Assembly (NCBI GenBank): GCA_015066905.1
Contig: SVNN01000003.1
Coordinates: 1-42,065 of the forward strand
Origin: Ruminococcus sp.
GTDB lineage: Bacteria; Bacillota; Clostridia; Oscillospirales; Ruminococcaceae
Reading direction: 5' to 3'
Length of the DNA: 42,065 bases
The translations under genes and the position numbers were made by a program. Below the pieces are notes generated by a model, which made no database searches, had not been told where the DNA came from, and saw only the letters and a list, made by a program, of their open reading frames with translations. Positions 21,502-29,780 of this stretch are shown here, in pieces (the stretch's first letter is position 1; every line of letters starts with the position of its first letter).

Positions 21502-23034
21502 TTACTGATGTCCTGTTCGGAATTTTCTGTCCAGACTTCTGAACTGCACAGCAGAGGTGATATGTCTGAGGTCAATGACATCCGCGCCGTCGAGATCGGC
21601 GATTGTCCGTGCGACCTTGAGGATGCGGTCATATCCGCGTGCGGAAAGTCCCAGACGGTCGAACACATCGCGCAGACGCTGTGCGGCGCTGTCGGTCATT
21701 GGGCAGAATTCACGCAGACGATCGGGCGTGATCCGTGCGTTGCAGGCAATCTGTGTGCCGGCAAAGCGTGCGTGCTGGATCTTTCTTGCGGCCTGTACGC
21801 GGCGGCGGATCGCAGCGGAGGATTCTTCCTTCGCTTTGCTGGTCAGATCGTCAAAGGCAACAGGTGCGACCTCTACATGCAGATCAAAACGGTCGAGCAT
21901 CGGGCCGGACACCTTTGAGAGATAGCTGTGGATCTGCCGCTCCGTGCAGGTGCATTTCCGGTTCGGCTGTCCGAAATAGCCGCAGGGACAGGGGTTCATC
22001 GCCGCAACGAGCATGATATCGCACGGGTAGGAAACGGTTCCTGCCGCACGGGAGATTGTAACGCGGCGTTCCTCCAGCGGCTGGCGCAGGATCTCCAGCG
22101 TGCGGCGGTCAAATTCAGCCAGCTCGTCCAGAAACAGCAGTCCGTTGTGGGCAAGCGAGATCTCTCCCGGACGCGGTACGCTTCCGCCGCCTGCCAGTCC
22201 CGCCGCGGAAATGGTGTGATGCGGTGCGCGGAATGGCCGGATCGTGACGAGCGGTTGTTCGGAGTTGAGCAGTCCGCTGACGGAATGCACCTGCGTGGTC
22301 TGGATGGATTCTTCAAAGGTCATCTCGGGAAGAATGCCGGGCATTCTCTGTGCGAGCATACTTTTTCCGCTGCCCGGTGCGCCGATCAGCAGTGTATTAT
22401 GCCCGCCGGCTGCCGCGATCTCCAGTGCGCGCTTGGCAACAGCCTGTCCGCGGACATCGGAAAAGTCGGGGACAGACAGGAGCGGCTGGGGATCGGGGAC
22501 ATAGCGCGGCTGGGGCAAAAGCGGACGAACGCCGTCAAAATGCGCCAGCAGATCAGCGACAGATGCCACGCCATATACGGCAATATCGTCCACCACGGAC
22601 GCTTCAAAGGCATTGTCGGCAGGGACAAATACAGCGCGTAGTCCGTTTTTTCGTGCCAGAAGAACCATCGGCAGAACACCCTGCACAGGACGGACAGTGC
22701 CGTTTAAGGATACCTCACCGATGAACGCGCAGTCATCCGCGGGAAGCGGGATACGCTGTGTGGCGGCGAGGATCGCTGCAAGGATTGCGAGATCGTGGAC
22801 AGAGCCGCTTTTTCTTGTGTTTGCAGGCGCAAGATTGACCATGATCCGTGCAGGCGGCAAGGCGATCTCACAGGCGCGCAGGGCAGAACGGATCCGCTCG
22901 CGGCTTTCCTTTACGACAAGGTCAGGCAGTCCGACGATTTCAAACAGAGGCTGTCCGCGGCTGATGTCGATCTCCGCCTCGACGGAGAACGCATTCAGAC
23001 CGAACAGCCCCAGACTGTTGATTTTAGCAAACAT
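21502..23034 (-). CDS. YifB/ComM family Mg chelatase-like AAA ATPase
   Basis: MFAKINSLGLFGLNAFSVEAEIDISRGQPLFEIVGLPD; LLIGAPGSGKSMLAQRMPGILP; NPCPCGYFG; RFDLHVEV. Confidence 0.97.
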   Translation of the reverse strand: MFAKINSLGLFGLNAFSVEAEIDISRGQPLFEIVGLPDLVVKESRERIRSALRACEIALPPARIMVNLAPANTRKSGSVHDLAILAAILAATQRIPLPADDCAFIGEVSLNGTVRPVQGVLPMVLLARKNGLRAVFVPADNAFEASVVDDIAVYGVASVADLLAHFDGVRPLLPQPRYVPDPQPLLSVPDFSDVRGQAVAKRALEIAAAGGHNTLLIGAPGSGKSMLAQRMPGILPEMTFEESIQTTQVHSVSGLLNSEQPLVTIRPFRAPHHTISAAGLAGGGSVPRPGEISLAHNGLLFLDELAEFDRRTLEILRQPLEERRVTISRAAGTVSYPCDIMLVAAMNPCPCGYFGQPNRKCTCTERQIHSYLSKVSGPMLDRFDLHVEVAPVAFDDLTSKAKEESSAAIRRRVQAARKIQHARFAGTQIACNARITPDRLREFCPMTDSAAQRLRDVFDRLGLSARGYDRILKVARTIADLDGADVIDLRHITSAVQFRSLDRKFRTGHQ

Positions 23035-23050: not shown

Positions 23051-23962
23051 TTATGATTGTCCGTAGCGCTGGCGGATCTCTTCGATGGTCGGGAGCGCTT
23101 CTTTTTCCTCCTCGGGAATGCCGTCGTACATGGAGGGGGACATCACATCCACCGCAGGCGGTTTGACCGAAAGCGGAATCTCGTTGTGATTGAGGTTGTC
23201 GAACGGATTCGCTTCCCTTGGCAGGGGAATATGCTTGGAGAGATTGACGTGCGGTGTTTTTTCGAGATTCACACGTTCGCGGATCTCAGGTTTTCTGACG
23301 TTTTCGGGCTGCACCATCAGATGGTCGAGCGAGCGGTCAAGCACCAGCGGTTCCATATCCTTCGGCGCATTGATTTCATCCATCGGTGCAGGGCGGCTTA
23401 CCACAGAGAGATCGACTTCCTCTCTGGGCTTTTCACTTTCGGATACGCGTCTGCTGAAGTGCGGATAGCCCGGCAGTGCGCTGAGCTCTTTCAGCTGGCT
23501 GTGCGAGCGGAGCAGCAGTACAGCGTTGCCGATTCCCACAGCGAACAGCAGCAGATAGATCCAGAAATAGGGCAGGCGGCCGGTGACGAACAGGAGTGCT
23601 GTCACCGCGTAGAGAACAATCATCGCGATCGTTGCACCCTTCATTTTTGCGGCAGATACTACCGCCAGTGCAGAGAGTGTCAGACCGAACAGGATGATCA
23701 GGATAGAAAACCCTGCACCGCTGAGGAGGGTGACAGAGTATTGAATTGTAAAAATATCCCCCTCACTATAGTGGTACGTAATGAGGTCGTCGGGTGAAAA
23801 CATTGTGCTGCTCAGGATCGCAGCGACGAACATGCCGCACGCACACGAAAGGAGTGCAATCACGATGTGGATCCATATACTGAAGGAAAAACGCTTATTG
23901 ATAATGCGGAGCTGTTCCGCGGCGCGTTCATAGTGTGCGTAAGGGTCATTTCCGTTTGCCAT
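23051..23962 (-). CDS. Hypothetical membrane protein (YPxF trio member 3)
   Basis: Start re-placed at MANGNDPYAHYERAAEQLR (23962). TM segments followed by LKELSALPGYPHFSRRVSE. Confidence 0.75.
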   Translation of the reverse strand: MANGNDPYAHYERAAEQLRIINKRFSFSIWIHIVIALLSCACGMFVAAILSSTMFSPDDLITYHYSEGDIFTIQYSVTLLSGAGFSILIILFGLTLSALAVVSAAKMKGATIAMIVLYAVTALLFVTGRLPYFWIYLLLFAVGIGNAVLLLRSHSQLKELSALPGYPHFSRRVSESEKPREEVDLSVVSRPAPMDEINAPKDMEPLVLDRSLDHLMVQPENVRKPEIRERVNLEKTPHVNLSKHIPLPREANPFDNLNHNEIPLSVKPPAVDVMSPSMYDGIPEEEKEALPTIEEIRQRYGQS

Positions 23963-24809
23963 GTTTCTTTCCTTTCTTTCCGTTTTTCTGTACAGGCTTG
24001 TTTTCTGTCGGTGCTGTCTTTGCTTCGGCGGAGACGGCGGTTTCTTCACCGATGATCTCGCTGAGGATCTGCTCGTTCTTTTCCGCGATCTGTTCGGGGG
24101 TGGGCACAGGAGCAGATGCGGGTGATTCCACCTTTACAGAAGACGTTTGGGCGGCCTTTGCTTTCTTTGCAAGCATATCGGTATATGCCTTATCGCGGTC
24201 GGGCGCGTCGGGATGCCACGGCGCATGGTCGAAGTCCTCTTTCGAAAGCCTCAGTTCGCGGTTGAAGTTCGGATATCCCTCCAGCTCGCGCATACGTTCC
24301 TCCTCCGCCATCGACAGAACGGCGCGGAGATAGAAGACTGTGCCTGCAGCGCCAAGCGCGGCAGAGAACCAGTCGCTGTTCACAACGCCGAGAATCGCCA
24401 TCAAAGCGTAGAATGCCAGCAGGAGAATGTGACAGCGGTGGAGATAAGACCACGCAAGGAATGCCACAAGCAGAACAGCAGCAGCAGTGAACACCTGTGC
24501 AAAGCCGCCGCAGAAGATCGCCACAAAATTATCCGGCTCGCCCATATTGTAGGCGACAAGCGAAAAGATCTGGAAGTGTTTTTTGAACACCGCGGACACT
24601 GCAACAATCAGGCAGATTGCCGCGCAGCAGAAGAATGCAAGGCGATAGTCGCGGTGGATCTGCGCCATCATGGACTTGCAGTGGTCAAAGTAGGAGGTGT
24701 CTTTTTGAATCTGCGTCTGTTTCACGCGTTCCGCCTGTCTGCGGATCTCCTGTTCCATATCAAAGCTGTCGTCAACCGGGGGCGCGACGCGTTTTTTCTG
24801 TTCAGTCAT
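23946..24809 (-). CDS. Hypothetical membrane protein (YPxF trio member 2)
   Basis: TM segments followed by EEERMRELEGYPNFNRELRLSKEDF; overlaps both neighbours. Confidence 0.75.
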   Translation of the reverse strand: MTEQKKRVAPPVDDSFDMEQEIRRQAERVKQTQIQKDTSYFDHCKSMMAQIHRDYRLAFFCCAAICLIVAVSAVFKKHFQIFSLVAYNMGEPDNFVAIFCGGFAQVFTAAAVLLVAFLAWSYLHRCHILLLAFYALMAILGVVNSDWFSAALGAAGTVFYLRAVLSMAEEERMRELEGYPNFNRELRLSKEDFDHAPWHPDAPDRDKAYTDMLAKKAKAAQTSSVKVESPASAPVPTPEQIAEKNEQILSEIIGEETAVSAEAKTAPTENKPVQKNGKKGKKHGKRK

Positions 24810-25488
24810 GTATATCCTCCTTCTTTAATTGTACGGGCGGCGGAACGATCAGGTCTTCCATTACGTTTGGTGCTGCTGCAGCATGGTTTGTCAGATCATC
24901 CCCCGCTGCGCGGATGACCAGGTCATCCATAAAGCCCTGCTGTGCGGCAGTGCTGTATTCGGTTTCGGCTTCGTCGCGCTCCTGCCGCGCCTGATGGATC
25001 CGTTCCTTTTGTTCACCGATTTCGTCTGTATTCATACGGAGGGAAAAGTCGGGATATTCGTCACATTCTCTGAGCTTTTCGTCCGCCCTGAGCAAGGGGT
25101 ACGCGCAGACACAGAGGACGCCGACGACGACATTCAGAGCGCGGACAAGACCGGAAAACCCAAACGCCGGAACATCAACATAATCCATCCTGTCGACAAG
25201 GGTGGCAAATACGGGAACGGCGAAACAGAACCGTTTGTCGCGTTTATAGCAGACGCCAAGCACAAGCAGCAGCATCGGGATCTCAAACCAGATCTCCTTG
25301 GCGTAGGTGCTGCCCATGAAAGCGAAGGAGAGCAAAAACAGATAAAGACAGATGAAAAACCACGGTACGTTGACGATTGCGGCAAAGATAAAGATGGCGG
25401 AAAGACACTTGTCGATCTTCTTCTTTTTTGTCAGACAAGCGTCCAGATATTTGGAATATTCGCGTCTGATCCGTTCGTTGTCATGCAT
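24802..25488 (-). CDS. Hypothetical membrane protein (YPxF trio member 1)
   Basis: TM segments followed by ADEKLRECDEYPDFSLRMNTDEIG; RBS GAAAGAGGTGA upstream. Confidence 0.75.
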   Translation of the reverse strand: MHDNERIRREYSKYLDACLTKKKKIDKCLSAIFIFAAIVNVPWFFICLYLFLLSFAFMGSTYAKEIWFEIPMLLLVLGVCYKRDKRFCFAVPVFATLVDRMDYVDVPAFGFSGLVRALNVVVGVLCVCAYPLLRADEKLRECDEYPDFSLRMNTDEIGEQKERIHQARQERDEAETEYSTAAQQGFMDDLVIRAAGDDLTNHAAAAPNVMEDLIVPPPVQLKKEDIHD

Positions 25489-25527: not shown

Positions 25528-25556
25528 ATTATAGCACAGTTTTGCACAGTTGAAAA
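25528..25556 (-). promoter_or_regulatory. Promoter of the membrane-protein trio (TTTTCA-17-TGCTATAAT, extended -10)
   Basis: Minus strand -35 25556-25551, -10 25533-25528; a direct repeat ACTGTGC-AAA-ACTGTGC fills the spacer. Confidence 0.65.
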
Positions 25557-25627: not shown

Positions 25628-25663
25628 AAAAAAACCGCATTCCAACACGGGTGGAATACGGTT
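25628..25663 (-). terminator. Minus-strand intrinsic terminator
   Basis: AACCGTATTCCA-CCCGTGT-TGGAATGCGGTT then T5GCGTTTT. The single variable pair is G-U on the minus strand but A-C on the plus strand, supporting minus orientation. Confidence 0.75.
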
Positions 25664-25689
25664 AAAGTTACAGAATTGAGCGGAAAGCC

Positions 25690-25718
25690 TTGACAGCGGG
25701 GGAGAGTTGTACTATAAT
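25690..25718 (+). promoter_or_regulatory. Perfect consensus sigma-A promoter for rpoBC
   Basis: TTGACA (25690-25695), 17 nt, TATAAT (25713-25718). Confidence 0.85.
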
Positions 25719-25761
25719 TGTAGAATACATCATTATGGGTATTTGTGCTGATTTGCAAAAT

Positions 25762-25790
25762 AGTATACCACATTGCTCATGAGATGTCAA
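25762..25790 (-). promoter_or_regulatory. Minus-strand sigma-A promoter (candidate sRNA promoter)
   Basis: TTGACA (25790-25785), 17 nt, TATACT (25767-25762) preceded by TGG (extended -10). Confidence 0.75.

Positions 25791-25913: not shown

Positions 25914-29780
<3,867 letters not shown>

What the first reader, a model, noticed from the sequence alone, without database searches (positions are those of the whole stretch)
25628..25790. Candidate orphan small RNA face-to-face with the rpoB promoter
On the minus strand there is TTGACA-17-TGG-TATACT (25790-25762). About 130 nt downstream is an intrinsic terminator (25663-25628) whose one variable base pair works only on the minus strand (G-U versus A-C on plus). 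No plausible ORF lies between. The next minus-strand gene (start 25488) has its own promoter beyond the terminator, so this looks like an independent transcription unit of about 128 nt. It runs through the perfect rpoB promoter (25690-25718, plus strand) in the opposite direction, and its 5' end overlaps the first roughly 30 nt of the rpoB leader. That geometry could give transcriptional interference, antisense control of RNA polymerase synthesis, or a trans-acting sRNA. Promoters and terminator are seen directly; transcription and function are inferred.
Basis: partly seen in the sequence, partly recalled or inferred. Interest (0 to 1): 0.72.

Follow-up and report, generated by a model that had tools for sequence, protein, structure and literature searches.

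The report
Conserved antisense promoter facing rpoB promoter
In Ruminococcus-like gut bacteria, a second strong promoter points straight back at the promoter of the RNA polymerase gene rpoB and is predicted to make a short antisense RNA of about 130 bases that stops just past it; this layout is conserved across dozens of genera and suggests a simple way for the cell to limit how much RNA polymerase it makes.

Summary
The minus-strand promoter, the minus-strand-only terminator, the ~128-nt spacing, the lack of an ORF and the separate promoter of the next gene are all in the sequence. Comparative evidence goes well beyond one window. Of 88 non-redundant relatives, 80 keep a TG-extended minus-strand promoter facing rpoB (0.4% of shuffled copies do). 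The gap between the two -10 boxes is 43-61 nt (median 44, never below 43). A minus-strand terminator lies just beyond the rpoB -35 in 55/88 (12/88 on the plus strand, 4% in shuffles); its stem changes in a compensatory way, and predicted RNA lengths cluster at 121-141 nt. The neighbouring gene varies in identity and strand, so this is an independent unit. Weaker versions occur in other families of the order and class; none clear outside Clostridia. The RNA body is not conserved, only the promoters, the rpoB start region and the terminator, which favours cis-acting interference (possibly RNA polymerase sensing its own abundance) over a trans-acting sRNA. No Rfam family matches and I found no paper describing it. 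Transcription and function are untested. 'Orphan' is wrong: it is widely conserved and tied to rpoB.

The parts
25690..25718 (+). rpoB promoter, TTGACA-17-TATAAT (12/12)
   Evidence: invariant or nearly so in relatives
25719..25738 (+). conserved start region of the rpoB transcript (after the -10, through the predicted start ~25725); lies between the two facing -10 boxes but belongs to rpoB, not to the antisense unit
25762..25790 (-). facing antisense promoter, TTGACA-17-TATACT with extended -10 (TGG)
25628..25755 (-). predicted antisense RNA, about 128 nt, running through the rpoB promoter
   Evidence: predicted from promoter and terminator positions; length conserved in relatives
25628..25663 (-). 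intrinsic terminator (12-bp stem, U-tract) of the antisense RNA
25528..25556 (-). separate promoter of the next minus-strand gene (start 25488), beyond the terminator; boundary of the unit
   Evidence: also in same-genus L010
25914..29780 (+). rpoB coding sequence, the gene whose promoter is crossed

Best explanation
The stretch holds a conserved pair of face-to-face sigma-A-type promoters: the rpoB promoter and, 43 nt away between the -10 boxes, an extended -10 promoter firing back through it and stopping at its own terminator just beyond the rpoB -35. Most likely it works in cis. The predicted start sites are only ~30 bp apart, so polymerases should not be able to sit at both at once, and each antisense transcription event clears or blocks the rpoB promoter. 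Because RNA polymerase itself drives both promoters, the arrangement could lower rpoB transcription when free holoenzyme is plentiful, a feedback needing no other factor. The terminator confines the interfering transcript to the rpoB promoter and spares the neighbouring gene. Shown by comparison: both promoters, geometry, terminator, independence from neighbours. Inferred: transcription, interference, and the sensing role.
For: Facing TG-extended promoter in 80/88 relatives against 0.4% of shuffles; at other strong promoters in the same loci 1/34, at rpoB 75/79. Minimum -10 to -10 gap of 43 nt in 81 sequences, median 44. Across 149 family genomes an exact head-to-head pattern hits 76 places, 44 of them bearing the rpoB start-region block (my count from the printed matches), the other 32 scattered. 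Minus-strand terminators 55/88 against 12/88 plus-strand and 4% in shuffles, with compensatory change. Upstream gene on either strand and of varied kind. RNA body not conserved outside the promoters, the rpoB start region and the U-tract. In several distant families the terminator hairpin is built on the rpoB -35 itself.
Against: No transcript has been seen. About a third of relatives lack a convincing terminator at the expected place. The gap grows in distant families (outer -35 to -35 span up to ~148 nt), so strict steric exclusion is not kept everywhere. Many lineages of the order and class (f17, f19-f21, genus g16) lack the facing promoter, so it is not essential to rpoB control. A published start-site map of C. 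phytofermentans (PMC5171806) reports antisense starts as rare, though its libraries excluded RNAs under 200 bp.
Confidence: 0.55

Rival explanations
1. Antisense RNA pairing: the RNA pairs through its 5' ~30 nt with the 5' end of the rpoB leader and alters its stability or early elongation.
For: The two predicted RNAs are complementary over their first ~30 nt, and the rpoB start region is the best conserved sequence between the promoters.
Against: The overlap beyond the rpoB start block varies freely. That block is kept where the facing promoter is absent (f19, g16) and in modified form outside the class, so it is not kept for pairing.
Confidence: 0.15
2. Trans-acting small RNA: an independent sRNA that regulates other mRNAs and merely happens to be encoded opposite the rpoB promoter.
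For: Own promoter, own terminator, about 130 nt, no ORF.
Against: The RNA body has no conserved segment other than the complement of rpoB promoter elements, no Rfam match, and the unit stays at rpoB even when the neighbours change.
Confidence: 0.07
3. The facing promoter sequence is conserved for another reason: a holoenzyme- or regulator-binding site acting as a roadblock, or an element of the rpoB leader RNA, with little or no productive antisense transcription.
For: A bound holoenzyme alone would block rpoB elongation; about a third of relatives lack a clear terminator.
Against: The conservation pattern is that of a promoter (hexamers and TG conserved, spacer free, 17 or 18 nt), and a strand-specific terminator with compensatory change implies that a transcript is made and ended.
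Confidence: 0.13
4. Leader attenuator of the divergent upstream gene: promoter 25790 drives the gene at 25488, with the terminator as a regulated attenuator.
For: In the window the next gene is co-oriented with the antisense RNA.
Against: In 33 of 86 relatives the neighbour is on the other strand, and the window gene has its own promoter downstream of the terminator, shared with a same-genus genome.
Confidence: 0.03

Closest known systems
Transcriptional interference by convergent promoters in bacteria and phages (e.g. PMC6593788 on promoter occlusion; PMC10349824 on collision; listed, abstracts only)
   Same: Two promoters face each other at short distance; one transcript crosses the other promoter, allowing occlusion and collision.
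   Different: Here the target is the RNA polymerase gene itself and the pair is conserved over many genera, with a dedicated terminator just past the target promoter. Interference has not been measured.
cis-encoded antisense RNAs of bacteria (e.g. the antisense transcript in the 5' UTR of spo0A in C. phytofermentans, PMC5171806)
   Same: A promoter in the 5' UTR region of a gene fires in the antisense direction.
   Different: Here a short terminated unit crosses the promoter of rpoB and is conserved in position and length across genera; the paper does not mention rpoB in its main text.
Autogenous control of rpoBC in E. coli (own knowledge, not tested here)
   Same: Would serve the same purpose: RNA polymerase limiting its own synthesis.
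   Different: The E. coli case acts through rplL-rpoB attenuation and translation, not through a facing promoter.

Membership tests
Independent antisense transcription unit | own promoter and own terminator on the antisense strand | tested here: met
   (sequence evidence only)
Independent antisense transcription unit | a transcript is made in cells | not testable with these tools
   no RNA data held
Convergent-promoter transcriptional interference | face-to-face promoters close enough for occlusion, conserved | tested here: met
Convergent-promoter transcriptional interference | antisense firing lowers sense output | not testable with these tools
   needs reporters or in vitro transcription
Trans-acting sRNA | conserved seed or structure in the RNA body | tested here: not met
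   (per-position conservation); one search found no consensus structure, though the terminators were poorly aligned there
Known Rfam family | match to a covariance model | tested here: not met
5' leader attenuator of the divergent gene | a co-oriented gene downstream of the terminator, conserved | tested here: not met
   33 of 86 neighbours lie on the opposite strand

The most novel reading that the evidence does not exclude
RNA polymerase regulates its own synthesis without any dedicated regulator: free holoenzyme binds a conserved facing promoter in the rpoB leader and, by firing or sitting there, shuts the rpoB promoter. This would be an old homeostatic device in part of the Clostridia.
Probability: 0.35. 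Interest if true: 0.8.

Novelty: new variant of a known kind. Interest (0 to 1): 0.62.

Why it matters
How bacteria set the amount of their RNA polymerase is, to my knowledge, poorly understood outside E. coli. A fixed, conserved antisense promoter at rpoB in a large group of gut bacteria points to a concrete, minimal feedback circuit that can be tested by a few point mutations in a reporter. It would also be a rare case of convergent-promoter interference kept by selection over a wide phylogenetic range rather than a by-product of pervasive transcription.

Tried and rejected
Rfam scans of the window region and of five relatives: nothing relevant. Second copies in the genome: none. Coding potential of the antisense RNA: rejected. 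Consensus fold of the whole antisense RNA: no pairs, because the very divergent terminator stems do not align; a register-matched subset shows compensatory change. Attenuator of the divergent gene: rejected. The idea that the conserved block between the promoters belongs to the antisense unit: rejected, since lineages lacking the facing promoter keep it. A link between leader length and presence of the facing promoter: none (p = 0.41). Literature searches found no description of this arrangement; only open-licence papers were searched and supplements were not readable.

Full report
WHAT IS IN THE SEQUENCE. The window is one contig of a 1.9-Mb draft genome related to Ruminococcus. rpoB starts at 25914 on the plus strand behind a perfect promoter at 25690-25718. 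On the minus strand a second promoter, TTGACA-17-TATACT with an extended -10 (TGG), lies at 25790-25762. The two face each other with 43 nt between the -10 boxes, so the predicted start sites (~25725 plus, ~25755 minus) are about 30 bp apart. The minus transcript would meet a 12-bp hairpin running into U7 at 25663-25628 and be about 128 nt long.

CONSERVATION OF THE FACING PROMOTER. I collected rpoB upstream regions from whole-genome and named-contig searches. In 80 of 88 non-redundant relatives a TG-extended minus-strand promoter lies 98-120 nt from the rpoB -35, against 0.4% of dinucleotide-shuffled copies. Other strong promoters in the same loci show such a partner in 1 of 34 cases, rpoB promoters in 75 of 79. 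The gap between the -10 boxes is never below 43 nt and has a median of 44. In an exact-pattern scan of 149 family genomes, 44 of 76 head-to-head matches carry the rpoB start-region block (counted by me from the printed matches); the remaining 32 are scattered. Named carriers of the facing promoter include R. callidus ATCC 27760 (no convincing terminator found there) and R. flavefaciens.

CONSERVATION OF THE TERMINATOR. Within 85 nt upstream of the rpoB -35, 55 of 88 relatives have a minus-strand terminator of -10 kcal/mol or better, against 12 on the plus strand and 4% in shuffles. Predicted RNA lengths cluster at 121-141 nt although the stems differ completely. In 43 such RNAs every stem position shows several Watson-Crick pair types (these hairpins were chosen because they fold, so the pair table alone is not a test). 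In a register-matched subset of eight, 7 of 12 pairs changed on both sides while 95% of cells stay paired, above all 500 shuffles. In distant families some terminators are built on the rpoB -35 itself, suggesting repeated turnover of a terminator that has to sit just past the rpoB promoter.

INDEPENDENCE. The gene next to the unit varies, lying on the minus strand in 53 and on the plus strand in 33 of 86 loci (simple ORF calls, so individual assignments may be wrong). In the window it has its own promoter, also present in the same-genus genome. The RNA has no conserved ORF.

DISTRIBUTION. In other families of the order, 9 of 56 sampled loci have the facing promoter at a threshold where 0.6 is expected; in the rest of the class 13 of 52 against 1.0. 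It is missing in all sampled members of families f17, f19, f20 and f21. Of 28 loci from elsewhere in the phylum only one has a strong facing promoter-like sequence, without the TG at the right place. Unlike it, the sequence just after the rpoB -10 is conserved across the class whether or not the facing promoter is there, and a similar A-rich, ATG-containing start recurs across the phylum. These are therefore two separate conserved features.

HOW IT LIKELY WORKS. Per-position conservation is high only at the two promoters, the rpoB start region and, weakly, the U-tract; the RNA body is free to change. That argues for an effect of transcription in cis rather than of the RNA product. Given the ~30-bp spacing of the starts, occupancy of one promoter should exclude the other, and antisense transcription passes over the rpoB promoter before stopping. 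Since RNA polymerase drives both, this could act as feedback on its own synthesis. This last step is inference. I put ~0.9 on a real, conserved antisense unit (my judgement), 0.55 on cis interference as its main role, and 0.35 on the stronger claim of polymerase self-sensing.

KNOWN OR NEW. Convergent-promoter interference and antisense RNAs are known in kind. I found no Rfam family and no paper describing a conserved antisense unit at rpoB in these bacteria, within an open-licence library. A start-site map of C. phytofermentans reports few antisense starts but could not see RNAs below 200 bp (PMC5171806). I rate it a new variant of a known kind.

Noticed in passing
window 25719-25738; relatives: The first ~15-20 nt after the rpoB -10 are conserved across the class (family consensus TANAATNNTANAMTGTATCATAATGG; elsewhere ACTGCATTATAAT or AAATGC/T). 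A family pattern scan finds it about once per genome, apparently at rpoB. It contains a second -10-like stretch (ATAAT) and could be a promoter-proximal pause or start-site control element.
   Followed up: partly
window 23051-25488 (minus strand): Three consecutive predicted membrane-protein genes without a Pfam or NCBIfam match above cut-off; the second and third are related (BLASTP E 3e-8) and all three share a YPxF motif, suggesting a small paralogous family upstream of a YifB-like gene (21502-23034).
   Followed up: partly
relatives such as L115, L116, L123 (5' region of the predicted antisense RNA): In a Ruminococcus subclade the word GATAC occurs twice, ~18 nt apart, between the two -10 boxes (CGATAC...TGATAC), possibly a protein-binding repeat.
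   Followed up: no
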